Of a stretch of DNA of 64,000 nucleotides, positions 17,119 through 30,028 are shown one piece after another. Made by a program: the position numbers and the translations under genes. The notes beneath the pieces are model-generated. The model saw only the letters and a program-made list of their open reading frames with translations. It made no database searches and was not told where the DNA came from. The stretch's first letter is position 1, and each line of letters begins with the position of its first letter. This stretch comes from Streptomyces sp. NBC_00341 (GTDB lineage Bacteria > Actinomycetota > Actinomycetes > Streptomycetales > Streptomycetaceae), in contig NZ_CP108002.1 of the NCBI RefSeq assembly GCF_041435055.1, positions 6,882,001 to 6,946,000 of the forward strand, written 5' to 3'.

Positions 17119-20100
17119 ATGATCCTGCTCCTGTCGACGTCAGACACCGACCTGCTCAGCGCCCGCGCCTGTGAGGGCCCGGTCGCCTACCGCTACGCGA
17201 ACCCCTCCCGGCTCCCGCTCCAGGACCTCCCGCAGCTCCTGGACGGCACAGAGCTGGTCGTCGTACGCCTGCTCGGCGGGGTCCGCGCCTGGCAGGACGG
17301 CCTCGACCAGGTGCTTGCCACCGGCCGCCCCGTCGTCGTCCTCACCGGGGAACAGGCCCCCGACGCCCAGCTGATGGCCGCCTCCACCGTCCCGATCGGC
17401 ATCGCCGCGGAGGCCCACGCCTATCTGGCGCACGGCGGCCCCGGCAACCTGGAGCAGCTCGCCCGCTTCCTCTCCGACACCGTCCTGCTCACCGGCCACG
17501 GCTTCGAACCGCCCGCCCCGGCACCCTCCTGGGGCCCGCTGGAGCGCACGCCCCGCGCGACGGACGGCCCCACCATCGCGGTGCTCTACTACCGCGCCCA
17601 CCACATGAGCGGCAACACCGCGTTCATCGACGCCCTGTGCGGCGCCGTCGAGGACGCCGGCGGCCGCGCCCTGCCGCTGTTCGTCGCCTCGCTGCGCACA
17701 CCGGAGCCCGAGCTGATCGACGCCCTGCGGGCCGCCGACGCGATCGTGACCACGGTGCTCGCCGCGGGCGGTACCCGGCCCGCGGAGGCGTCGGCCGGCG
17801 GTGACGACGAGTCCTGGGACGCCGGCGCCCTCACCGGCCTCGACGTGCCCATCCTCCAGGCGCTCTGCCTCACCTCCTCCCGGTCCGACTGGGAGGACAA
17901 CGACGAGGGCGTCTCGCCGCTGGACGCCGCGAGCCAGATCGCCGTCCCCGAGTTCGACGGCCGTCTGATCACCGTCCCGTTCTCGTTCAAGGAGATCGAC
18001 GAGGACGGCCTCCCCGCGTACGTGGCCGACGCCGAGCGCGCCGCCCGGGTCGCCGGGACCGCGGTGCGCCACGCGCGCCTCCGCCACATCCCGAACGCCG
18101 ACAAACGCCTCGCCCTGGTGCTGTCCGCGTACCCGACCAAGCACTCCCGGATCGGCAACGCCGTCGGACTCGACACCCCGGCGAGCGCCGTCGCCGTGCT
18201 GCGCCGACTCCGCGCCGAGGGGTACGACTTCGGTGACGAGGAGGTGCCGGGGCTCGCCTCCGGTGACGGCGACGAGCTGATCTACGCGCTGATCGAGGCG
18301 GGCGGTCACGACCAGGAGTGGCTGACGGAGGAGCAGTTGGCCCGCAACCCGGTCCGCATCCCGGCCGCCGACTACCGGCGCTGGTACGCGACGCTGCCGG
18401 CCGGACTCCGCGCGGCCGTCGAGGAGCACTGGGGCCCCGCTCCGGGCGAGATGTTCGTGGACCGCTCGCGCAACCCCGAGGGCGATATCGTCCTGGCCGC
18501 CCTGCGCCGGGGCAATCTGCTCATCCTCATCCAGCCGCCGCGCGGCTTCGGCGAGAACCCGATCGCGATCTACCACGACCCCGACCTGCCGCCCTCGCAC
18601 CACTACCTGGCCGCCTACCGCTGGATCGCGGCCGCCGCGGACGACAACGGCTTCGGCGCCGACGCGATGATCCACCTGGGCAAGCACGGCAACCTGGAGT
18701 GGCTGCCCGGGAAGAACGCCGGGCTGTCCGCCGCGTGCGGGCCCGACGCGGCGCTGGGTGATCTCCCGCTCGTCTACCCGTTCCTGGTCAACGACCCGGG
18801 CGAGGGCACGCAGGCCAAGCGCCGCGTCCACGCCACCCTGGTGGACCACCTCGTACCGCCGATGGCCCGCGCGGAGAGCTACGGCGACGTGGCCCGGCTG
18901 GAACAGCTGCTGGACGAGCACGCCCAGATCGCGGCGATGGACCCGGCGAAGCTCCCGGCCATCAGGGCCCAGATCTGGACCCTGATCCAGGCCGCGAAGC
19001 TCGACCACGACCTGGGTCTCGAAGACCGTCCGGAGGACGAGGGCTTCGACGAGTTCATCATGCATCTCGACGGCTGGCTCTGTGAGATCAAGGACGCCCA
19101 GATCCGCGACGGACTGCACGTCCTGGGCGGCGCGCCCGCCGGCGCCGACCGGGTCAACCTGGTCCTGGCGATCCTGCGCGCCCGCCAGATCTGGGGCGGC
19201 ACCACCTCCCTGCCCGGCCTGCGCGAGGCGCTCGGCCTCGACGAGTCGGCGGCCACCCGCACCACCGCCGACGAGGTGGAGGAGCAGGCCCGCACCCTGG
19301 TCCAGGCGATGGAGGACGCGCACTGGGCGCCGCAGGCCGTTGCCGGGGTCGCCGCCGGACACCCCGGTTCCGTCGCCGACATCCTCGACTTCGCGGCCCG
19401 CGAGGTCGTGCCCCGGCTGGCGGCCACCACCGACGAACTCGACCACACCGTGCACGCGCTGAACGGCGGCTTCGTTCCCGCCGGCCCCTCCGGCTCCCCG
19501 CTCCGCGGACTGGTCAACGTCCTGCCGACGGGCCGCAACTTCTACTCCGTCGACCCCAAGGCGGTGCCCTCCCGGCTGGCCTGGGAGACCGGACAGGCGC
19601 TGGCCGACTCGCTGCTGGAGCGCTACCGGACCGACAACGGCGACTGGCCCACCTCGGTCGGCCTGTCCCTGTGGGGCACCAGCGCGATGCGTACCGCCGG
19701 CGACGACGTCGCGGAGGCCTTCGCGCTGCTCGGCGTCCGCCCGGTCTGGGACGACGCCTCGCGCCGGGTCACCGGCCTGGAGGCGATCCCGGCCGCCGAA
19801 CTGGGGCGCCCGCGCATCGATGTGACGCTCCGCATCAGCGGCTTCTTCCGCGACGCGTTCCCGCACACCATCGGCCTCCTGGACGACGCGGTCCGCCTCG
19901 CGGCCTCGCTGGAGGAGCCCGCCGAGCAGAACTACGTACGGGCGCACACCCAGGCGGACCTGGCCGCCCACGGCGACGAACGCCGCGCCACCACCCGTAT
20001 CTTCGGCTCCCGCCCCGGCACCTACGGCGCCGGACTGCTCCAGCTCATCGACTCGCGGGACTGGCGTACGGACGCGGACCTGGCAGAGGTCTACACCGTC

Positions 20101-20715
20101 TGGGGCGGCTACGCCTACGGCCGCGAACTCGACGGGCGCCCGGCCCGCGAGGAGATGGAGACGGCGTACAAGCGCATCGAGGTCGCGGCCAAGAACACCG
20201 ACACCCGCGAGCACGACATCGCGGACTCGGACGACTACTTCCAGTACCACGGCGGCATGGTGGCCACCGTGCGCGCGCTCAAGGGCACCGCCCCCGCGGC
20301 GTACATCGGGGACTCCACCCGGCCGGAGACCGTCCGGACCCGCACCCTGGTCGAGGAGACCTCGCGCGTCTTCCGGGCCCGCGTCGTCAACCCCAAGTGG
20401 ATCGAGGCGATGCGCCGCCACGGCTACAAGGGCGCCTTCGAGCTGGCCGCCACCGTCGACTACCTCTTCGGCTACGACGCCACGACGGGGGTGGTCGCCG
20501 ACTGGATGTACGACAAGCTCACCGAGACCTACGTCCTGGACCCGGAGAACCGCGAGTTCCTCCAGCGGGCCAACCCCTGGGCCCTCCACGGCATCGCGGA
20601 ACGCCTCCTGGAGGCCGAGTCGCGCGGGATGTGGGAGAAGCCCGACCCGGAGATCCTCGCCGGTCTGCGGCAGGTCTTCCTGGAGACCGAGGGTGACCTG
20701 GAGGGCGAGGACTGA
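17119..20715 (+). CDS. cobN: Cobaltochelatase large subunit CobN
   Basis: A 1198-residue subunit that inserts Co2+ into hydrogenobyrinic acid a,c-diamide with an AAA+ partner. The usual length and motifs are present: HMSGNTAFIDAL, KHSRIGNAVGLD, HLGKHGNLEWLPGKN and the VLPTGRNFYSVDPKAV box shared with ChlH/BchH. ATG 17119 with AGGAAGG upstream is preferred over GTG 17089, which lies inside the riboswitch expression region. CobS/CobT or Chl-type partners are not in the window. The 3' end is followed by an IS element placed inside the probable terminator. Confidence 0.95.
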   Translation: MILLLSTSDTDLLSARACEGPVAYRYANPSRLPLQDLPQLLDGTELVVVRLLGGVRAWQDGLDQVLATGRPVVVLTGEQAPDAQLMAASTVPIGIAAEAHAYLAHGGPGNLEQLARFLSDTVLLTGHGFEPPAPAPSWGPLERTPRATDGPTIAVLYYRAHHMSGNTAFIDALCGAVEDAGGRALPLFVASLRTPEPELIDALRAADAIVTTVLAAGGTRPAEASAGGDDESWDAGALTGLDVPILQALCLTSSRSDWEDNDEGVSPLDAASQIAVPEFDGRLITVPFSFKEIDEDGLPAYVADAERAARVAGTAVRHARLRHIPNADKRLALVLSAYPTKHSRIGNAVGLDTPASAVAVLRRLRAEGYDFGDEEVPGLASGDGDELIYALIEAGGHDQEWLTEEQLARNPVRIPAADYRRWYATLPAGLRAAVEEHWGPAPGEMFVDRSRNPEGDIVLAALRRGNLLILIQPPRGFGENPIAIYHDPDLPPSHHYLAAYRWIAAAADDNGFGADAMIHLGKHGNLEWLPGKNAGLSAACGPDAALGDLPLVYPFLVNDPGEGTQAKRRVHATLVDHLVPPMARAESYGDVARLEQLLDEHAQIAAMDPAKLPAIRAQIWTLIQAAKLDHDLGLEDRPEDEGFDEFIMHLDGWLCEIKDAQIRDGLHVLGGAPAGADRVNLVLAILRARQIWGGTTSLPGLREALGLDESAATRTTADEVEEQARTLVQAMEDAHWAPQAVAGVAAGHPGSVADILDFAAREVVPRLAATTDELDHTVHALNGGFVPAGPSGSPLRGLVNVLPTGRNFYSVDPKAVPSRLAWETGQALADSLLERYRTDNGDWPTSVGLSLWGTSAMRTAGDDVAEAFALLGVRPVWDDASRRVTGLEAIPAAELGRPRIDVTLRISGFFRDAFPHTIGLLDDAVRLAASLEEPAEQNYVRAHTQADLAAHGDERRATTRIFGSRPGTYGAGLLQLIDSRDWRTDADLAEVYTVWGGYAYGRELDGRPAREEMETAYKRIEVAAKNTDTREHDIADSDDYFQYHGGMVATVRALKGTAPAAYIGDSTRPETVRTRTLVEETSRVFRARVVNPKWIEAMRRHGYKGAFELAATVDYLFGYDATTGVVADWMYDKLTETYVLDPENREFLQRANPWALHGIAERLLEAESRGMWEKPDPEILAGLRQVFLETEGDLEGED

Positions 20716-20744
20716 GCAACCGGCCGCACCGGCCGCCGGATGTC

Positions 20745-20768
20745 AGGAGGGCCCCACCGCTGCGCGAC
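20745..20768. terminator. Left half of a split bidirectional terminator
   Basis: AGGAGGGCCCCACCGCTGCG after the cobN stop is complementary to the sequence at 22598-22624 on the far side of the IS element (shared core GGGCCCCACC, with TGCGC following). Without the IS the two arms would lie together as a hairpin between the convergent cobN and aminotransferase genes. Confidence 0.65.
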
Positions 20769-20790
20769 GCTGACTCTGTCGGGGATCTTG
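20769..20790 (+). repeat. Left terminal inverted repeat of the IS element
   Basis: The 22 bases beginning GCTGACTCTGTC and ending GGGGATCTTG match the right end exactly in inverse orientation. Just inside, GGGGATC-TTGAG-GATCCCC forms a small hairpin, which may shield the transposase from outside transcription. Confidence 0.92.
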
Positions 20791-20823
20791 AGGATCCCCG
20801 GCGGGGCAGCATGATCAACGGGC

Positions 20824-22566
20824 ATGCTCGACTCTGTCCAAGGACCAATGCAGTTGTCGAGGTGCCCGTTGTCGCTCCACGCCCGTTCTGGTGAGCAAGT
20901 CCCTTCTCTGACCGTGCAGATGGCGCGGGCGAGCAATCCGGGTGGTACGACGGCGATGTGGGTGAGAGACCGCCTGGGCGGGCTGTGGCGTGACGAGGAC
21001 TTCGCGGACTGGTATCCGCGTGACGGCCGCCCCGGGCTCTCGCCCGCTCAGCTGGCCACCGTGTGTGTGCTGCAGTTCCTGCTCGGTCTGTCGGACCGGC
21101 AGGCCGCCGAGGCGGTTCGCTGCCGCATCGATTTCAAGTACGCGCTGGCCATGGAGCTGAACGATCCCGGATTCCACCACAGCGTGCTGGGCGACTTCCG
21201 CGAGCGTCTCACCGAGGACGACCGCGCCGACCGTCTCCTTGACCTCACGCTTGCGCGCCTGAAGGAGGCCGGTCTCGTGCGCGAGCGCACCACTCAGCGC
21301 ACGGACTCCACCCACGTCCTGGCCGCGGTGCGCGACCTGACCCGGCTGGAACTGGTCACCGAGGCCGTCCGCGCCGCCCTGGAAGAGCTGGCCGGCACCG
21401 CTCCGCACCTGCTGGCCGACCTGGTAGACGAGGAGTGGGGGCGTCGTTACGGCCGCCCGGTCCGCCTGGGCAAGAACCCCACCCGCCCCAAGACCAGGAT
21501 CCTCGCCACCGGTGGTGACGCCGTCCGGCTGCTGGAGCACGTCGCAGAGCATGCGGCGGATCGCCTGTCCGGGCCCCGGGCCCAGGCCCTGCGGCAGATC
21601 ATGGTGCAGAACTACTACCGCGACGGGGCCGGCCGTCTGCGCTGGCGCACCGCCGATGACGGCGGGCTGCCGCCCTCAGCGGTCGCGGTCGTCTCGCCCT
21701 ACGACCCGACGGCCCGTTACGCGCGCCGCGGACACGTCACCCGTTGGAAAGGGTTCGTCGCGCATCTCACCGAGACCTGTGATCCTGAAGGCGTCAACGT
21801 GATCACGGATGTGGCCACCACCGACGCCACCGGCTACGACGCGAAGGCTCTGCCCGGTATCCACACCCGGCTGGGGCGTCGCGGGCTGCTGCCCGCCGAG
21901 CATCTGGTCGACGGCGGCTACACCTCCCTGGTCCATCTCGAACAGGCGGCCCGGGAACACCAGGTCACGGTCACCGGACCACTGCCGGTCAACACCACCC
22001 GCCAGAACCGCAGGAACAACGGCTTCGGCCGCGACGACTTCCACATCGACTTCGACCGCCGACAGGTCACCTGCCCGCAGGGCGAGACCAGCGCGGGATG
22101 GCACGGCCCCTACCCGACCTCCTCACCCACCGCAGCACCTCTGATCGTGGCACGGTTCACCAAGAGCCAGTGCCGTCCCTGCCCGGTCCGCACCCGCTGC
22201 ACGACCACCGCCGACAGCGCCCGGAGCGTGGGCTTTCCCCCGCGAGAACTCCGTGACCTGCAACTCCGAGTCCGCGCCGAGCAGCAGACACCCGAATGGC
22301 AGGCCCGCTACGCGGTCCGCTCCGGAGTGGAAGGCACCATCAACGAGCTCGCCCACGGACACGGCATGCGCCGCTGTCGCTACCGGGGACAGCACAAAGC
22401 CCACTTACAGCACGTGTTCACAGCCATCGCCGCAAACATCGAGCGCCTCAGCCGGCGGCCGCCGACCGGAGAACCACCTCCGTCCCGGCCGCCGACCGCA
22501 TTCCAGAACTACCTGGACCAGCACGGAATCACCCGGCCGAGGTCTTGGCGGTCCGCCAGAGACTGA
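20824..22566 (+). CDS. IS1182-family transposase
   Basis: A DDE transposase of up to 580 residues. Catalytic regions look intact: [13 protein letters not shown] (first Asp), [13 protein letters not shown] (second Asp) and [20 protein letters not shown] (Glu). A CPQG...[10 protein letters not shown] zinc-ribbon insert and the C-terminal [20 protein letters not shown] are typical of the family. The N-terminal domain with [24 protein letters not shown] matches the DUF772-like region. The true start may be up to about 25 codons inside the frame. It is the only gene of the element. Confidence 0.9.
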
Positions 22567-22575
22567 GCAGACCGC

Positions 22576-22597
22576 CAAGATCCCCGACAGAGTCAGC
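22576..22597 (-). repeat. Right terminal inverted repeat of the IS element
   Basis: Exact inverse copy of the left end (CAAGATCCCC...GAGTCAGC), starting 10 bases after the transposase stop codon. Confidence 0.92.
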
Positions 22598-22624
22598 GTC
22601 CTGCGCGGGTGGGGCCCTTCCTCC
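22598..22624. terminator. Right half of the split terminator
   Basis: CTGCGCGGGTGGGGCCCTTC adjoins the stop codon of the aminotransferase gene and is the complement of 20745-20768. With the IS in place this arm has lost its near partner, so termination of both convergent genes may be changed. Confidence 0.65.
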
Positions 22625-23959
22625 TCACAGGACGCCGAAGGCGCCTTCCACGGCTTCGCACGTGGCGTCCAGTTCGTCCTCCGTGACAGCCGCGGCGACG
22701 AACCAGCAGGCCATGCCGTAGGCGTTGGTGTGGATTCCGCGTTTGAGGAGTTCGTGGCGGTACGCGTCGTAGCGGGCCTGGTCGGTCAGCTGGAGGTCGC
22801 GGTACTGCCGGGTCGGTGCGCCGTCAGCGGTGAACACCGTCTGGAACATGGCGCCCACGCCCTGCACCGAGCAGGGGATGTGCCGGTCATGGGCGGCCCG
22901 GCGAATCGTCTCCATGATGCGGCGACCGCTCTTGTCGATCCGTTCGGTGACCTCCGGCCGGTTCAGCTGCCGGAGGGTCACCAGGGCGGCGGTCGCGCAC
23001 AGCGGTGAGGCGTTGTAGGTTCCGCCGTGCTTGACCTGCCCCTGTGCCAGGGGTTCCATCACGTGCCGCAGTCCGGCGAAGGCCGCGATCGGGACGCCGC
23101 CGCCCAGGGCCTTGGAGAAGACGGCGATGTCCGGCACGACCCCGAACATCGTCTGGGCTCCCCCGGGACCGGTCCGGAATCCGGTACAGACCTCGTCGAA
23201 GACGAGCACGATCTCGCGGCGCGTGCACTCCTCGCGCAGCAGGTCCAGGAATCCCGGCTCGGGCATGGTGCAGGCGTTGTTGGCGACGATGGGCTCGCAG
23301 ATGACAGCGGCGAACTCCCCGCGATGGGCGTCCAGGACGGCGCGGAGCGCGGCGGGATCGTTCCACGGGCTGACGACCACGTCGTTGACGACCCCCGCCG
23401 GAATGCCGGGGGAGTGGGGCACGGGGTACGGGGTGGCGTAGGGGCCGGCCTCGGAGGCGGAGGGGCGGTTGGATATCGCCAGGCTGTCGGTCCAGCCGTG
23501 GTAGTGGCCCTCGAACTTGAGGATCTTCGAGCGGCCGGTGTACCCGCGGGCGGCGCGCACCGCTCCTTGCACCGCTTCGCTCCCCGAGTTGGCGAAGCGG
23601 ACGAGCTCGGCACACGGCACCATGTCGCAGATCAACTCGGCGAGTTCCACCTCGGTGGTGTTGCAGGTGCCGAACATCGTGCCGGTGTGCAGGACCGCGG
23701 TGAGCGCCTCGGCGAGCTGCGGACTGGCGTGTCCCAGTACCGCGCTGCCGTAGGAGATCAGGTAGTCGAGGTACTCGTTGCCGTCGACGTCCCGGATGCG
23801 CGCACCGGCCCCCTCGGCCATGTAGAGCGGATAGGGGTGCGGGCCGGTCGATGTCAGCCGGGAGGAGGAACTGATGCCACCGGCCAGTGATGCCTGAGCA
23901 CGGGCGAACCAGGCCCGGCTGCCGTCGGACCCGCCCAACGCCGTTATATGGCCATTCAT
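22625..23959 (-). CDS. Glutamate-1-semialdehyde 2,1-aminomutase-like class III aminotransferase
   Basis: A 444-residue PLP enzyme. ATG 23959 is preceded by GGAG 6 bases upstream. Fold signatures are SYGSAVLGHASPQLAEAL, FANSGSEAVQGAVRAARG, KFEGHYHGWTDSL, LVFDEVCTGFRTGPGG (cofactor Asp) and VFSKALGGGVPIAAF (PLP Lys), with KHGGTYNASPL. It resembles HemL, but HemL for tetrapyrroles normally sits with heme genes; relatives of this type often serve as amino-group transferases or mutases in specialised metabolism. It diverges from an SDR 87 bases away and lies beside a dioxygenase pair, which supports a biosynthetic role. The substrate is unknown. Confidence 0.85.
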   Translation of the reverse strand: MNGHITALGGSDGSRAWFARAQASLAGGISSSSRLTSTGPHPYPLYMAEGAGARIRDVDGNEYLDYLISYGSAVLGHASPQLAEALTAVLHTGTMFGTCNTTEVELAELICDMVPCAELVRFANSGSEAVQGAVRAARGYTGRSKILKFEGHYHGWTDSLAISNRPSASEAGPYATPYPVPHSPGIPAGVVNDVVVSPWNDPAALRAVLDAHRGEFAAVICEPIVANNACTMPEPGFLDLLREECTRREIVLVFDEVCTGFRTGPGGAQTMFGVVPDIAVFSKALGGGVPIAAFAGLRHVMEPLAQGQVKHGGTYNASPLCATAALVTLRQLNRPEVTERIDKSGRRIMETIRRAAHDRHIPCSVQGVGAMFQTVFTADGAPTRQYRDLQLTDQARYDAYRHELLKRGIHTNAYGMACWFVAAAVTEDELDATCEAVEGAFGVL

Positions 23960-24046
23960 GTGCGGCTCCTGTTTGGTAGATGGGTGCTCGGGCACGCTCG
24001 GAGAGCCCTTCATGCGGAGAGTTCCTGAGGAGAGGTCGGGTGGGTC

Positions 24047-24796
24047 GTGGCTGGGAGAACGGCTGTCGTCACGGGCGCCGGAAGCGGGATCGGGCGGGCG
24101 TGCGCGCTGGGTCTGCTGGAGGACGGCTGGACGGTGATCCTGGTGGGCCGGCGCGAGGAGCCGCTGGGGGAGACCGTGATGCTCACCCCCGCCGACGGTC
24201 GTGCCCGCGCGGTCCCGTTCTCCGCCGACATCACCGACCCCGTGGCCGTGGACAGGCTGTTCGGACATGTCGTGGACCGGTTCGGGCGGCTGGACGTGCT
24301 GTTCAACAACGCCGCCGACACCATGCCGTACACCCCGACCGAGGACGTGGGCGTCGAGGAATGGCACCGCGTCATGGACTCCATCGCCACCGGTACCTTC
24401 CTATGCTCCCGCGCGGCCTTCCGCGTGATGAAGGAGCAGACACCGTGCGGCGGACGGATCATCAACAACGGCGCACCCTCCGCCCAGGCCCCCCGGCCCG
24501 ACTCCATCGCGTTCACCGCCGCCAAGCACGCGGTGGCCGGGATGACCCGCTCGCTGTCCCTGGACGGCCGGCGCTACGACATCTCCTGCGGCCAGATCGA
24601 CATCGGCAACGTCACCCCGCAGGACAGGCCCCAGCCGGCCGTCCTGCAGGCCGACGGGTCACGTCGGGTGGAACCCACCATGGACGTGCGGCACGTCGTC
24701 GACCTGGTGCGAGCCATGGCCTGCCTGCCTCTCGGAGTGAACATCCAGTCCGTCCTGGTCATGCCCAGCGCCATGCCCTACGTGGGCCGGGGATAG
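24047..24796 (+). CDS. Short-chain dehydrogenase/reductase family protein with degenerate catalytic site
   Basis: A 249-residue Rossmann protein. Cofactor features are good: VVTGAGSGIGRACALGL, an R-R-E stretch after the second strand suggesting NADPH preference, and LFNNAAD. The catalytic tetrad is not: the YxxxK tyrosine is Phe (AFTAAKHAV, codon ttc), the Ser 13 residues before it is Ala (GAPSAQAPRPD), and the tetrad Asn before TGTF is Ile by alignment; only the Lys remains. It may bind a nucleotide without normal dehydrogenase chemistry, or catalyse something else. It starts at GTG 24047 after AGGAGAGG. Its 3' end overlaps the convergent gene by 138 bases. Confidence 0.85.
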   Translation: MAGRTAVVTGAGSGIGRACALGLLEDGWTVILVGRREEPLGETVMLTPADGRARAVPFSADITDPVAVDRLFGHVVDRFGRLDVLFNNAADTMPYTPTEDVGVEEWHRVMDSIATGTFLCSRAAFRVMKEQTPCGGRIINNGAPSAQAPRPDSIAFTAAKHAVAGMTRSLSLDGRRYDISCGQIDIGNVTPQDRPQPAVLQADGSRRVEPTMDVRHVVDLVRAMACLPLGVNIQSVLVMPSAMPYVGRG

Positions 24797-25309
24797 CCCG
24801 GCCACGTACGCCTCGAACCAGTTGCCGGGCTCCAGGTGCCCGGCCATGGACCAGGCGAGCATGCGATGCAGCCCGTCCAGGTGGATCAGTCCCTCGCGGA
24901 CCGCGAGGGACTCGTAGTCACGCCCCCGCACGGCCCGGGTGGTCAGGAACAGGGCGAGGCGATCAGCCGTGCCCTGACGGTCGAGTTTGGACGCGCACAA
25001 CGGATTGGTACGCGCGTACGAGCTGTTGAGCGAGGTGAGCCGGTCCACCGCCTCGGCCACGGTCAGGCCGGTCCTGGGGATGAGTTCCACCTCGCCGTCC
25101 TCGCCCAGGTGCCAGGGCAGCACCACGTTCCGGACCTCCGGCCCTTCCAGCAGGACCCGGTGCCAACGGCCCCGCTGCTCCAGCTCGGCGTTGCGGATGT
25201 GCCCCTCGGCCTCGTCATTCGAATTGGCCTGGTCGGACGGGTCGAAGGGGTGCTCCTTCTCGAAGAGCTCCATGATCGCCTCGAACCGCACTGCTTCCAG
25301 AACTCTCAT
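24659..25309 (-). CDS. Protein of unknown function with a ParB/sulfiredoxin-like DGxHR motif
   Basis: A 216-residue protein I cannot place firmly; it may be a DUF6309-type protein, from recollection. ATG 25309 overlaps the stop of the dioxygenase gene, so the two are coupled. The segment LIHLDGLHRMLAWSMAG resembles the DGxHR-A core of ParB/sulfiredoxin nucleotide-binding domains; WHRVLLEGPEVRNVVLPWHL and ELIPRTGLTVAEAVDRL are also distinctive. Residues after about 170 (from GLSPAHVGHGAG on) are His/Gly-rich and are read from the antisense of the SDR gene, so the original stop codon was probably lost. Confidence 0.7.
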   Translation of the reverse strand: MRVLEAVRFEAIMELFEKEHPFDPSDQANSNDEAEGHIRNAELEQRGRWHRVLLEGPEVRNVVLPWHLGEDGEVELIPRTGLTVAEAVDRLTSLNSSYARTNPLCASKLDRQGTADRLALFLTTRAVRGRDYESLAVREGLIHLDGLHRMLAWSMAGHLEPGNWFEAYVAGLSPAHVGHGAGHDQDGLDVHSERQAGHGSHQVDDVPHVHGGFHPT

Positions 25310-26106
25310 CGGCTGTGCCTCTCCGCCCTTTCGTACTCGCTGAAGTGTCTCTCCGCGAAGAGCTCCGGCCACCCCGCTCCCAGACCACGCGACCGGGCCA
25401 CTGCCAGTACCTGTCGCCAGTAGGGCTTGACCGGTGGCCACAGTGCCCCTGTGCGGCAGTAGGAGCCGTCGATCATGTAACGCGGGCCGCTGTCCGCATG
25501 GGGCGCGGCTGCCGCCCGACGGGTGTGGAAGAGCGCCGAGTGGAGTACGACGGTCGTCCCTGGAGGCACATCGTCGATGACCACTTCACCCGGGAGCGTG
25601 TCCGTGCCCAGGTGGCTGCGGGCGTCCTTCTCGGCGATCTCCAGGTGCGAGCCCGGCAGCACTGCCAGGCCACCCAGTTCCGGCTGAATTCCGCCTATAT
25701 AATGTAACGCGTGGATCATGGGTAAGTGCCTTTTTTCCTGCGGCTGTTGCTCGTAATCGTGATGCCAGCTCTTGCCGGCTCCGCCGGCCGTTCTCCGGTC
25801 GCTGTGCAGGTGGTGGAACACGAAGGATTCGCCGAGTAGCGCGGGGCTGCTGAGCAGGTCCAGCAGCGGCGGATGGACCGCGAGCTCACCGTGCGCCTCA
25901 AGGTCCAGCTCGACCATGCGGGGCGGCTCGGCCTCCGCACGCAGACAGGCGTCGATGGACTTCTGACGCCACCCCGCCTCCACCCACTCGTCCACCTCCG
26001 GCACGAGACGCTCGACAAGCGTGCCGGGCAGGAAGCCGGGCAGTACCAGGAATCCCTCCTTGGTGAAGCCTTCCGCCTGGGCCTCGATGGTGCGGGTATC
26101 TCTCAC
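25306..26106 (-). CDS. Phytanoyl-CoA dioxygenase (PhyH)-like Fe(II)/2-oxoglutarate oxygenase
   Basis: A 266-residue non-heme iron enzyme. The 2-His-1-carboxylate ligands are in GKSWHHDYEQQ (HxD type) and LHSALFHTRR (distal His), with an Arg for 2-oxoglutarate close by. FTKEGFLVLPGFLPGTLVERL is the usual N-terminal helix-strand and GGLAVLPGSHLE is the conserved turn. It likely hydroxylates a small molecule, perhaps an amino acid or a carrier-bound intermediate. It starts at GTG 26106 with a weak binding site and is coupled to the downstream DGxHR protein. Confidence 0.85.
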   Translation of the reverse strand: MRDTRTIEAQAEGFTKEGFLVLPGFLPGTLVERLVPEVDEWVEAGWRQKSIDACLRAEAEPPRMVELDLEAHGELAVHPPLLDLLSSPALLGESFVFHHLHSDRRTAGGAGKSWHHDYEQQPQEKRHLPMIHALHYIGGIQPELGGLAVLPGSHLEIAEKDARSHLGTDTLPGEVVIDDVPPGTTVVLHSALFHTRRAAAAPHADSGPRYMIDGSYCRTGALWPPVKPYWRQVLAVARSRGLGAGWPELFAERHFSEYERAERHSR

Positions 26107-26418
26107 GTGCTGGAACCCCCCGGTTCACTCGGCTGTTGCCGCACGGATGCCGCTGCGGGCGGCGTCTTTCTGTCCCAGGTTCATGCGAGTCATACCGAAG
26201 GCGTGGCTATATGGCCAAAAGTGGGTGGCTCGGCAGGGCCATTGCCGCATGTTCGACGGTGAACGGCGCCGGGTGTCATGGCGGCACGCACGGGGCGTGC
26301 CCCGGCGGATGCGAGCCAATGATCGAAGAGGCCCGTGATCGAGCGCCCAACTCCGTTGTCAGTGCCTCCCCATAGAGTTCAGTTATCACTCGGGGAGCTT
26401 CGGAGAAGGAGCAGAAAC
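26107..26418. other. Intergenic region upstream of the dioxygenase and VWA genes
   Basis: A 312-base divergent region with lower GC than its surroundings. It holds GGCTATATGGCC (about 26203-26214), a 12-base near-perfect palindrome in an AT-rich spot, a possible operator or -10 region. AAGGAG at 26406-26411 is the binding site of the VWA gene. No RNA gene or small ORF is convincing. Confidence 0.4.
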
Positions 26419-27477
26419 GTGTCCGCCAACAGGATTCAGCACAAGGTGAATCACGTCGCGCTGGTCGTCGACTGTTCAGGTTCCATGCGTCCGCACCAGG
26501 GCCAGCTCATTCGTGTCGTGGACGAGTTCGTGGCCGGCCTGAAGGCCGAATCGGACAGCCTCGGCCATGAGACCCGGATCAGTCTCTATTCCTTCGATCA
26601 CAGGGTGGAGAACCTCGTCTGGGACATGGACGTGAAGCATCTGCCGTCCATGCGCGGTCTGTACAGGGTCAACAACGGCGCCACGGCCCTTATCGAGGCC
26701 TCCTTGAAGTCCCTGGACGATCTGGGCCATATCTGGGAGGAGTACGGGGAGCACAGCTTCCTGCAGATCGTGGTGACGGACGGCGAGGAGAACGCCTCCG
26801 GCGGCGACCGGCGGCACGACGGCGACATGGCCGTCCTCGGGCCCTGGCTCGACAGGATCGCGGCGAAGATGGGCGGGCTCCCGGGCCACTGGACGTCCGC
26901 GATCCTGGTGCCGAACTCGCTGGCGAAGCGCACCGCTCAGAACTACGGCTTCCCCGCGGGGAACATCGCCATCTGGGACGCGGACTCCCAGGAGGGCGTC
27001 GAGGAGGCGATCGGCACCGTGCGCGCCGCCGCCACCAGCTTCCTGCGGGGCCGCGAGCAGGGCGTGCGCGGCACAAAGAATCTGTTCGCCGTGGGGCAGG
27101 ACATATCCGTTGACGAGGTACGGGCGAATCTCGAACCGATACCGGCCGACAAATACCGGCTCCTGAAGGTCGACAAGGAGATCGAGATCCGGCCCTTCGT
27201 CGATTCGCATCCGGGTGTGACCTACGAACGCGGCTCGTGCTACTACCAATTGGGTGCCCGGGTCCAGGTTCAGCCCGACAAGGAAGTCGTCGTGGTCGAG
27301 AAGGACACCGATCGCGCCTATACGGGTGACGCGGCGCGCAGTCTCCTCTTCGGCACGGGTATCCACGGGACGGTCTCGGTGAAGGCGGGGAACAATCCCG
27401 AGCTGGAGGTCTATGTGCAGAGCCGCTCCGTGAACAGGAAGCTCAAGCCGAAGACGCGTCTGCTCATCATGCTCTGA
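26419..27477 (+). CDS. von Willebrand factor A domain protein
   Basis: A 352-residue protein starting at GTG 26419, with AAGGAG 7 bases upstream. The N-terminal 200 residues form a VWA domain with a complete metal-ion-dependent adhesion site: DCSGSM (DxSxS), the GATALIE Thr and VVTDGEE. The C-terminal part (about 210-352) is beta-rich with no motif I recognise. There is no signal peptide or membrane helix, so it acts inside the cell, perhaps as a scaffold. Neighbours do not explain it. Confidence 0.8.
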   Translation: MSANRIQHKVNHVALVVDCSGSMRPHQGQLIRVVDEFVAGLKAESDSLGHETRISLYSFDHRVENLVWDMDVKHLPSMRGLYRVNNGATALIEASLKSLDDLGHIWEEYGEHSFLQIVVTDGEENASGGDRRHDGDMAVLGPWLDRIAAKMGGLPGHWTSAILVPNSLAKRTAQNYGFPAGNIAIWDADSQEGVEEAIGTVRAAATSFLRGREQGVRGTKNLFAVGQDISVDEVRANLEPIPADKYRLLKVDKEIEIRPFVDSHPGVTYERGSCYYQLGARVQVQPDKEVVVVEKDTDRAYTGDAARSLLFGTGIHGTVSVKAGNNPELEVYVQSRSVNRKLKPKTRLLIML

Positions 27478-27530
27478 GGTCGTCATGCTCTGAGATTCTC
27501 GTTCGGCTCATGCGGTTCAGAGTCTGAGAA

Positions 27531-27546
27531 ATACCCCGGGGGGTAT
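27531..27546. promoter_or_regulatory. CstR-type operator 1 ahead of the persulfide dioxygenase gene
   Basis: ATACCCCGGGGGGTAT, a perfect 7-2-7 palindrome of the kind bound by CsoR/CstR repressors. It lies where the -35 region of a promoter with a TACAGT-like -10 (about 27553-27558) would be. Confidence 0.85.
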
Positions 27547-27567
27547 CACTGTTACAGTGAAAGGAAG

Positions 27568-27583
27568 ATACCCCCCGGGGTAC
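27568..27583. promoter_or_regulatory. CstR-type operator 2 ahead of the persulfide dioxygenase gene
   Basis: ATACCCCCCGGGGTAC, a second 7-2-7 site 37 bp (centre to centre) from operator 1 and 22 bases upstream of the start codon. Together they bracket the probable -10 element, so binding would block RNA polymerase. Confidence 0.85.
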
Positions 27584-27605
27584 ATCGCTATGGAGGGAGA
27601 CGGCC

Positions 27606-28976
27606 GTGTTCTTCGTGGACACCCTGGAGACCGAGGGACTGGGCAACCGCAGCTATCTCGCGGGCGGGGCGGCGGTGGCGGTGGCCGTCGACCCGCCGCG
27701 CGATGTGGAACGGGTCCTGGCGGCGGCTGCCGGGCGCGGGGTGCGGATCGGGTACGTGGTGGAGACGCACATACACAACGACTACGTGACCGGCGGCCTG
27801 GAGCTCGCCCGGCTGACGGGTGCGCGGTATCTGGTGCCCGCGTCGGCCCGGGTCTCCTTCGACCGGGTGCCGGTCGAGGACGGCGACAGCTTCGCCGTCG
27901 ACACCGGCCTCGATCTGCGGGCGCTGGCCACTCCCGGTCACACCCCGCACCACACCGCCTACGTGCTGGCCGAGGACGGACGGGAGGTGGCCGCGTTCAC
28001 CGGCGGGTCGCTGCTGATCGGCACGGTGGGCCGTCCCGATCTGGTCGAGCCGAGGCTGACCGAGCAGCTGGCCCGCTCCCAGCACGCCTCCGCCCACCGG
28101 CTGGCCGGGGAACTCCACGACGACGTGCGGGTGCTGCCCACCCATGGCTTCGGCAGCTTCTGCTCCGCCTCCCCGGCCGGGGGCGATGCCACCACCATCG
28201 GCAAGGAGCGGGCCGGGAACGACGCCCTGAACCAGGACGTCGACGCCTTTGTGGCGCAGATGCTCGCCGGGCTGGAGGACGTGCCCGCCTACTACGCGCA
28301 CATGGGCCCGGTGAACGCGGAAGGGCCAGGCCCGGTGGACCTGACCCCGCCCCGGACGGCCGACGGCGAGGAGATCGCGCAGCGCCTGGCCGCCGGGGAG
28401 TGGGTGGTCGACCTGCGCAGTCGTACCGCGTTCTCCCGGGGCCATGTCGCCGGGACGTTCAACTTCGAGGCCGGGGGCAAGCTCGCCACCTATCTGGCCT
28501 GGCTGATCCCGTGGGGCAAGCCCGTCACCCTCCTCGCCGCATCCGCCGGTCAGCTCGCGAAGGCCCAGCGGGAGCTGGTGCGGGTCGGCATCGAGCGACC
28601 GGCTGCCGCCGCCACGGGCGAGCCGTCCTCCTGGCTGCGGACGGGGCAGGACCTGCGCTCCTTCCCCCGCGCGGACTTCGCCGCCCTGAAGCAGGCGCTC
28701 GACGGTGGTGAGGACGTCGTGGTGCTCGATGTGCGCAGGGACTCCGAGCGGGCCGGTGAGTACGTACGGGGATCGGTGCACGTTCCCCTGCACGAGCTGC
28801 GCGAGCGCGCCGCCGAGGTTCCGGCCGGAGTGGTGTGGGTGCACTGCGCGGGCGGGATGCGTGCCGCGATCGCCGCGTCCCTGCTCGACGCCGAAGGCCG
28901 TGAGGTGGTCGCCGTCGACGACGGTTTCGACGCCGCCCGGAGCGCCGGTCTGACCGTGGCGTACGCACCGGCTTGA
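27606..28976 (+). CDS. CstB-like persulfide dioxygenase fused to two rhodanese domains
   Basis: A 456-residue fusion. Residues 1 to about 250 are a metallo-beta-lactamase-fold persulfide dioxygenase (THIHNDYVTGG, TPGHTPHHTAYVL, VLPTHGFGSFC). Residues about 260-350 form a rhodanese fold without the catalytic Cys (LLAASAGQL). Residues about 360-456 form an active rhodanese (VHCAGGMRAAIAAS). This order matches CstB of Staphylococcus, which oxidises glutathione/CoA persulfides and releases thiosulfate. The start is GTG 27606 after GGAGGGAG. Two CstR-type operators in its promoter indicate induction by reactive sulfur species. Confidence 0.88.
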   Translation: MFFVDTLETEGLGNRSYLAGGAAVAVAVDPPRDVERVLAAAAGRGVRIGYVVETHIHNDYVTGGLELARLTGARYLVPASARVSFDRVPVEDGDSFAVDTGLDLRALATPGHTPHHTAYVLAEDGREVAAFTGGSLLIGTVGRPDLVEPRLTEQLARSQHASAHRLAGELHDDVRVLPTHGFGSFCSASPAGGDATTIGKERAGNDALNQDVDAFVAQMLAGLEDVPAYYAHMGPVNAEGPGPVDLTPPRTADGEEIAQRLAAGEWVVDLRSRTAFSRGHVAGTFNFEAGGKLATYLAWLIPWGKPVTLLAASAGQLAKAQRELVRVGIERPAAAATGEPSSWLRTGQDLRSFPRADFAALKQALDGGEDVVVLDVRRDSERAGEYVRGSVHVPLHELRERAAEVPAGVVWVHCAGGMRAAIAASLLDAEGREVVAVDDGFDAARSAGLTVAYAPA

Positions 28977-29030
28977 CCCGCGTGCGTACGCACGGCGGCC
29001 GTGCGTCGCCAGGCGCGGGGCCGTGCGCCG

Positions 29031-29351
<321 letters not shown>

Positions 29352-29404
29352 CTACCGTGTCCAGGGCCACCGGCCCGGCCCGCACAGAAACGGAAACACC
29401 GCAT

Positions 29405-29992
29405 ATGACCGCCCCCGCCTCCACCCCCGCCCCTGCCGCAGTCCTCCCCGCCCAGGCGGCGGCCCGGCTCGGCCAGTTCGCCGTCATCGACGTCCGCACC
29501 CCCGGCGAATACGCCTCCGGACATCTTCCCGGCGCCCACAACATCCCCCTGGACCGGATACGTGCGGCACTTCCCGCGCTGAGTGCCGCCGCTGCCCGCG
29601 GCGACCTGCTGATGGTCTGCGCCTCCGGCAGCCGCTCCGCCACCGCCTGCGGCGAACTGGCCGCGGCCGGTATCGCCGCGGCCACCCTCACCGGAGGCAC
29701 CACCGCCTGGGCGGAGCAGGGTCACGCTCTCGACCGGCCCGCAGACGCCTCCCGGGTCTGGGCCATGGAACGCCAGGTCCGGCTCGCCGCCGGGTCCCTC
29801 GTCGTCCTCGGTCTCGCCGTCGGCACCCGCTACCGCCGCGGCCGCGCCCTCTCGGCCGCCGTCGGCGGCGGCCTGGTCTTCTCCGCCCTCACCAACACCT
29901 GCGGCATGGCCGCCGTCCTCGCCCGGCTGCCGCACAACCGTCCCTGCCACACCGACCTCGACGCCACCCTCGCCGCGCTGCACCAGCGTTAG
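29405..29992 (+). CDS. Membrane-anchored rhodanese (YgaP-like, rhodanese-DUF2892)
   Basis: A 195-residue protein. The N-terminal rhodanese domain has VIDVRTPGEYASGHLPGA and the catalytic loop MVCASGSRSA. The C-terminus has two hydrophobic segments (LAAGSLVVLGLAVG and AVGGGLVFSALTNTCGMAAV) followed by LARLPHN, the DUF2892 pattern. It should transfer sulfane sulfur at the inner face of the membrane. ATG 29405 is preferred to an upstream start because it begins just ahead of the domain. It belongs to the persulfide regulon through operator 29335-29350. Confidence 0.88.
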   Translation: MTAPASTPAPAAVLPAQAAARLGQFAVIDVRTPGEYASGHLPGAHNIPLDRIRAALPALSAAAARGDLLMVCASGSRSATACGELAAAGIAAATLTGGTTAWAEQGHALDRPADASRVWAMERQVRLAAGSLVVLGLAVGTRYRRGRALSAAVGGGLVFSALTNTCGMAAVLARLPHNRPCHTDLDATLAALHQR

Positions 29993-30028
29993 CCGAGGAG
30001 CCGAGGAGCCGAGGAGCCGAGGAGCCGA
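29992..30028. repeat. 8-bp tandem repeat after the membrane rhodanese gene
   Basis: Four exact copies of GCCGAGGA plus a partial copy, beginning at the last base of the rhodanese stop codon. A simple slippage repeat with no evident function. Confidence 0.85.

What the first reader, a model, noticed from the sequence alone, without database searches (positions are those of the whole stretch)
22625..26106. Four-gene locus of unknown product: HemL-like enzyme, defective SDR, PhyH oxygenase and a coupled DGxHR protein
The four genes sit together beside an IS element and are not part of a pathway I know. The oxygenase and DGxHR genes overlap by ATGA, and the aminomutase and SDR genes diverge from one 87-base region. 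A PLP aminotransferase/mutase plus an Fe/2OG oxygenase is a typical amino-acid-modifying pair in specialised metabolism. No peptide synthetase, ligase or transporter is present, so the product could be a small modified amino acid or a tailoring module for a remote scaffold.
Basis: partly seen in the sequence, partly recalled or inferred. Interest (0 to 1): 0.72.

Follow-up and report, generated by a model that had tools for sequence, protein, structure and literature searches.

The report
Relocating four-gene amino-acid-tailoring cassette
Four neighbouring Streptomyces genes without an assigned product turn out to be a conserved unit found at different places in different genomes, most likely making a small modified amino acid, and they include a reductase-like protein that has lost its catalytic residues in every member examined.

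Summary
In detail: four intact genes at 22625-26106 (HemL-like PLP enzyme, SDR, DUF6309 = the 'DGxHR' protein, PhyH-type Fe/2OG oxygenase). They form a unit: of 42 DUF6309 loci classified, 19 carry all four genes (14 of 20 in the window's genus), flanks differing except among near relatives. In 295 same-genus genomes the HemL-like clade occurs in 12, in all 12 with the PhyH at the same locus. It is not the housekeeping HemL, which lies elsewhere. Seventeen loci (14 in one other genus) carry a larger relative: PhyH, DUF6309, an A-T-E-R-like synthetase with an aspartate-like code, another class-III aminotransferase, TauD, SDR, usually a methyltransferase. The SDR is not randomly defective: its tetrad is N-S-Y-K in 17/17 sampled core homologues, (I/T/V)-A-Y-K in 15/15 NRPS-type and (I/V)-A-F-K in 23/23 cassette SDRs, under purifying selection: a fixed pseudo-SDR. 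The DUF6309 model weakly resembles the ParB/sulfiredoxin fold, which includes free-serine kinases. Best reading: a compact pathway that hydroxylates and (trans)aminates a small amino acid, DUF6309 perhaps activating the hydroxyl. Substrate, product and kinase activity are inference.

The parts
22625..23959 (-). HemL-like class-III PLP aminotransferase/mutase (444 aa); PLP lysine K283 kept, position of the HemL C-terminal Glu is Ala417
23960..24046 (.). 87-bp divergent intergenic region between AT and SDR; an AGGAG-like site precedes the AT start here and in most aligned relatives
24047..24796 (+). pseudo-SDR (249 aa): TGAGSGIG kept; tetrad N-S-Y-K reads I113-A143-F156-K160
24659..25309 (-). 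DUF6309 protein (216 aa), PF19828; LPWH 64-67 and HxDGLHR 143-149 (H143, D145-R149) invariant in 49 aligned sequences; weak ParB/sulfiredoxin-like fold match
24659..24796 (.). 138-nt convergent (antisense) overlap of the DUF6309 and SDR 3' ends
25306..26106 (-). PhyH-type Fe(II)/2-oxoglutarate oxygenase (266 aa); H115, D117 and H194 invariant in 46 aligned sequences; overlaps DUF6309 by ATGA
20748..22618 (+). IS1182-family element (transposase 20824-22566) beside the unit; bystander, not part of it

Best explanation
A functional, compact biosynthetic cassette for a small modified amino acid, found at different genomic places. SHOWN by sequence: four genes kept together in fixed order in 19 of 42 DUF6309 loci; Fe/2OG ligands and PLP lysine intact; an SDR that keeps its nucleotide-binding motif and Lys but has lost Asn, Ser and Tyr throughout its clade; purifying selection; a sister NRPS-bearing form that shares PhyH, DUF6309 and the sister SDR lineage and also uses a class-III PLP enzyme. 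INFERRED: PhyH hydroxylates a small amino acid or a derivative; DUF6309, perhaps a ParB/sulfiredoxin-fold nucleotide-using enzyme, acts on the new hydroxyl (for example phosphorylates it, as SerK does with free serine); the HemL-like enzyme adds or moves an amino group on an aldehyde or ketone intermediate; the pseudo-SDR does non-redox chemistry or serves as a nucleotide-bound partner. In the NRPS form the A domain (aspartate-like code) with E-like and reductase domains would hand an aspartate-derived amino-aldehyde to the aminotransferase; the compact form may take a ready-made amino-aldehyde or keto substrate from primary metabolism.
Confidence: 0.6

Rival explanations
1. Precursor or tailoring module for a scaffold made elsewhere in the genome: the cassette supplies an unusual amino acid to a distant NRPS or PKS.
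For: No scaffold enzyme in the cassette; the sister form has an NRPS in cis. A strain recalled as a macrolactam producer (ML694-90F3) has both a PhyH and a DUF6309 protein of this kind on record.
Against: No conserved partner gene within about 10 kb of the cassettes; a remote partner was not searched for.
Confidence: 0.3
2. DUF6309 is a ParB-like nucleotide switch, regulator or chaperone of the oxygenase, not an enzyme.
For: The ParB fold often serves as a CTP switch (passages of PMC12704722); EdeB, a ParB-family protein, is called a pathway-specific activator of edeine biosynthesis (title and abstract start only); translational coupling to PhyH suggests a stoichiometric partner; 3 of 49 DUF6309 members gave a weak winged-helix match (PF24410, best E 0.0054).
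Against: The window's protein shows no Pfam domain besides DUF6309; the fold matches cover nearly the whole ordered part, residues 9-176, leaving no room for a separate DNA-binding domain.
Confidence: 0.25
3. Decaying remnant of the NRPS-type cluster, the SDR being a pseudogene in progress.
For: NRPS, TauD and methyltransferase are missing; decayed relatives exist (G175, G265; L009).
Against: No gene is disrupted here; dN/dS 0.16-0.29 for AT and SDR; the same tetrad loss in 23 of 23 distinct SDRs; the HemL-like AT is only about 30% identical to the NRPS-type AT, so it was exchanged rather than inherited as a relic.
Confidence: 0.06
4. Housekeeping HemL copy plus chance neighbours.
For: The aminotransferase passes the HemL subfamily model PRK00062 (408.9 bits, cut-off 398).
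Against: It fails the HemL equivalog cut-off while the genome's other copy passes it; the neighbours co-occur.
Confidence: 0.02

Closest known systems
NRPS-type DUF6309 loci (PhyH, DUF6309, A-T-E-R-like NRPS, class-III AT, TauD, SDR, usually MT)
   Same: PhyH-DUF6309 pair, SDR of the sister clade, a class-III PLP enzyme
   Different: NRPS, TauD and methyltransferase present; another AT subfamily; SDR keeps the catalytic Tyr. No description met in the searches (listings only; hits not opened)
Glutamate-1-semialdehyde 2,1-aminomutase (HemL/GSAM); GntE transaminase of guanitoxin biosynthesis
   Same: Class-III family, PLP Lys and R34 kept; passes the broad subfamily model PRK00062
   Different: 382.5 against 527.3 bits for HemL, 385.6 against 525 for GntE; HemL Glu is Ala
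ParB/sulfiredoxin superfamily: SerK (free serine kinase), SbnI, sulfiredoxin
   Same: Model aligns to them over about 75-82 residues; a DGxHR-type motif (analogy recalled)
Classical SDR oxidoreductases (core Streptomyces SDR; PDB 9x6i, 4dyv)
   Same: Core homologues are roughly 53-59% identical; Rossmann motif kept
   Different: Asn, Ser and Tyr of the tetrad replaced by Ile, Ala and Phe
PhyH-type Fe/2OG oxygenases: ectoine hydroxylase, proline hydroxylase H11, SnoN, HygX, MysH
   Same: Fold and HxD...H ligands
   Different: 11-21% identity in the structural rows; substrate cannot be read from them

Membership tests
HemL (glutamate-1-semialdehyde 2,1-aminomutase) | Score above the TIGR00713 equivalog cut-off | tested here: not met
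   382.5 against 527.3 bits; the genome's other copy 590.6
HemL (glutamate-1-semialdehyde 2,1-aminomutase) | Score above the broader subfamily model PRK00062 | tested here: met
   408.9 against 398 bits
HemL (glutamate-1-semialdehyde 2,1-aminomutase) | C-terminal Glu of GSAM (Glu406 of the Synechococcus enzyme; number and role recalled) | tested here: not met
   Ala417 here and Ala in the 8 other cassette ATs aligned; Glu in the genome's own HemL
Class-III PLP aminotransferase family | PF00202 match and PLP-binding Lys | tested here: met
   225 bits; K283 invariant in 11 aligned sequences
Active classical SDR | Rossmann TGxxxGxG | tested here: met
   TGAGSGIG
Active classical SDR | Asn-Ser-Tyr-Lys catalytic tetrad | tested here: not met
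   I-A-F-K (22) or V-A-F-K (1) in 23 of 23 distinct cassette SDRs
PhyH-type Fe(II)/2OG oxygenase | Fold and HxD...H iron ligands | tested here: met
DUF6309 (PF19828) | Score above the Pfam gathering cut-off | tested here: met
   242.6 against 25 bits
ParB/sulfiredoxin fold | Confident structural or sequence match | tested here: inconclusive
Free amino-acid kinase (SerK/SbnI type) | Nucleotide-dependent phosphorylation of a free amino acid | not testable with these tools
   Needs an enzyme assay

The most novel reading that the evidence does not exclude
DUF6309 is a new family of small-molecule kinases (or other nucleotide-using enzymes) on a ParB/sulfiredoxin-like fold that acts on a hydroxyl installed by its translationally coupled PhyH partner, in a pathway in which a conserved pseudo-SDR, stripped first of Asn and Ser and then of Tyr, has been retained for non-redox chemistry on a vicinal diamino or amino-hydroxy acid.
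Probability: 0.22. Interest if true: 0.75.

Novelty: new variant of a known kind. Interest (0 to 1): 0.55.

Why it matters
If true, it defines a compact, easily cloned biosynthetic unit for a new amino acid, gives the uncharacterised Pfam family DUF6309 a testable role beside an oxygenase, and offers a clean natural series (N-S-Y-K, then x-A-Y-K, then x-A-F-K) for studying how a redox enzyme is turned into something else while staying under selection.

Tried and rejected
Tried, negative or uninformative: literature search for DUF6309, 0 papers; composition searches gave one listing, none and five listings, none opened, none with a title that fits; aminocarnitine biosynthesis gave two unrelated listings. 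An empty insertion site was not shown: in three cassette-free genomes with a close copy of the vWA gene (G002, G012, G021) no cobN lies within 1.5 kb of it. No Rfam match at 20000-30000; no tRNA in the window. Profile search of DUF6309 against PDB gave one chance-level hit; a Pfam scan of 49 members gave no ParB family, but a weak winged-helix match in 3. Of the VIA-align rows, 4 of 31 do not name the ParB/Srx superfamily (4ovb, 1vk1, 2hwj, 8cmr). A product guess not adopted: a 3,4-diaminobutanoate (aminocarnitine-like) product of the NRPS form, from the recalled meaning of the A-domain code; untested.

Rejected: housekeeping HemL; random pseudogene SDR; IS element as part of the unit.

Limits: neighbourhood genes come from my own GC3-based caller, not a standard one; locus classes rest on identity thresholds of my choice; dN/dS is a simple pairwise NG86 estimate on four comparisons. 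The tetrad counts use 55 distinct sequences: 23 cassette, 15 NRPS type, and 17 core homologues, the last being only those for which one search returned loci, out of 243 of 295 genomes with an SDR match at E 1e-55. Overlap lengths were wrong for some loci because tblastn reads through stops; one search replaces them.
Full report
What is there. The window lies in a 9.06-Mb genome of three contigs; all nine named loci found with its DUF6309 protein are Streptomyces, so I take the genus to be Streptomyces. Between a cobN gene with further cobalamin genes on one side and a VWA-like gene on the other (VWA_2 at E 0.0007, below its cut-off) sit four complete genes: HemL-like AT (22625-23959, minus), SDR (24047-24796, plus), DUF6309 (24659-25309, minus) and PhyH (25306-26106, minus). 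Lengths, the ATGA overlap and the 87-bp gap were recomputed. The cassette is 68.7% G+C against 71.3% for the window, 74.3% for 10 kb to its left, 71.1% for 10 kb to its right and 64.4% for the VWA-like gene next to it, so low G+C is not peculiar to the cassette. An IS1182-family element ends six bases from the AT stop. It has four identical copies in this genome, and relative L042 has AT and cobN side by side without it, so it is a bystander.

Is it a unit? In a sample of 295 same-genus genomes, DUF6309 occurs in 15, the PhyH clade in 19 at E 1e-30 and the HemL-like clade in 12 at E 1e-150. Of these 12, all have the PhyH, 11 have DUF6309 (not G161) and 11 have the cassette-type SDR (not G077, rows at 77% identity or more). 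The HemL-like clade was thus not seen outside the unit in this sample. The PhyH occurs without DUF6309 in six genomes: G161 is the cassette variant; four of the other five stand in a different shared neighbourhood (L147, L148, L150, L151) and the fifth is a short contig (L149). In a family-wide sample of 394 genomes DUF6309 occurs in 26. Pooling both samples, 42 DUF6309 loci in 39 genomes were classified by tblastn: 19 full cassettes, 17 NRPS type and 6 partial. The partial ones are G077 (no SDR), G474 (no NRPS, no AT), G409 (contig end), G487 (DUF6309 and TauD only) and two remnants, G175 and G265. In the window's genus 14 of 20 loci are full cassettes; 14 of the 17 NRPS-type loci are in one other genus (g14). 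Two calls rest on short contigs or stretches: G476a (NRPS type from 4% of the NRPS at a contig end) and G476b (cassette, 3.5 kb). Three genomes hold both types (G066, G465, G476). Flanking genes are shared only among near relatives; ABC-type ATPase genes lie within 10 kb of several loci but at no fixed place. This fits relocation; an empty site was not demonstrated.

The SDR. The four catalytic columns read N-S-Y-K in 17 of 17 core homologues sampled, (I/T/V)-A-Y-K in 15 of 15 NRPS-type and (I/V)-A-F-K in 23 of 23 cassette SDRs, all distinct sequences. The nucleotide-binding motif and the Lys remain. In a quick maximum-likelihood tree rooted on the core set each group is one clade, cassette and NRPS groups sister (SH-aLRT 97 and 99, core 100). 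The simplest history is loss of Asn and Ser in the common ancestor and of Tyr on the cassette branch. With dN/dS of 0.19-0.29 outside the antisense overlap the protein is constrained, so pseudo-SDR rather than pseudogene. That a protein without these residues is no ordinary dehydrogenase is general knowledge of the SDR family, not tested here.

The PLP enzyme. It passes the broad HemL subfamily model but neither the HemL nor the GntE equivalog cut-off; the genome has a separate HemL that passes. K283 and R34 are conserved, but where the genome's HemL has its C-terminal Glu all nine aligned cassette enzymes have Ala. The NRPS-type loci use another class-III enzyme, about 30% identical. A class-III PLP enzyme is thus a constant role filled by two different proteins.

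The NRPS sister. The synthetase reads AMP-binding, carrier, condensation-superfamily and reductase domains in the three proteins scanned. The motif HHLV(V/I)DGLSWR and a GG(D/E)SI carrier motif in the three looked at suggest an epimerisation rather than a condensation domain (motif meaning recalled). The specificity code was DLTK(L/I)GHVGK in 14 of 14 proteins read, of 17 loci, and resembles recalled aspartate and asparagine codes. With a class-III aminotransferase next door this suggests an aspartate-derived amino-aldehyde that is aminated. By analogy the compact cassette would act on a related amino-aldehyde or keto acid; this step is inference.

Known or new? No paper in the held library holds the word DUF6309, and no described cluster of this composition was met; most subscription journals are not held and the few listings were not opened. 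A PhyH and a DUF6309 protein of Streptomyces sp. ML694-90F3 are on record; that this strain makes incednine is recalled. Listings and passages of PMC11284099 were seen, none of which mentions these proteins.

Verdict. Observation confirmed; the locus is a conserved unit and a relative of an NRPS cluster; a small modified amino acid is the likeliest product class; the chemistry is unproven.

Noticed in passing
L147, L148, L150, L151: Relatives of the PhyH without DUF6309 share another neighbourhood: a polysaccharide-deacetylase-like protein (scored in L150), a FAD lactone-oxidase-like protein (scored in L147) and, in three of the four, an SDR; the others were matched by similarity or by eye only.
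   Followed up: partly
L076-L086, L038, L040, L041: NRPS-type DUF6309 cluster with an A-T-E-R-like synthetase and aspartate-like code; no description met in the papers searched; a candidate pathway in its own right.
   Followed up: partly
L009: Streptomyces sp. AW19M42 has the same site with DUF6309 but, by tblastn, only fragments of PhyH and SDR, no AT, and an IS1182-like fragment: a decayed copy.
   Followed up: no
26419-27477: The VWA-like gene beside the cassette is 97-98% identical to its counterparts in L009, L010 and L042; against L010 and L042 its dN/dS is 0.037, yet its synonymous divergence is higher than that of AT and SDR, hinting at a different history.
   Followed up: no
20748-22618: IS1182-family element with 43-nt, 88% complementary ends; four identical copies and three relatives at 43-44% identity in the genome.
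   Followed up: partly
L015, L035, L036, L039, L043, L044, L087: The convergent DUF6309/SDR overlap is 48 or 72 nt in these loci instead of 138, so the DUF6309 stop has moved along the antisense frame.
   Followed up: partly
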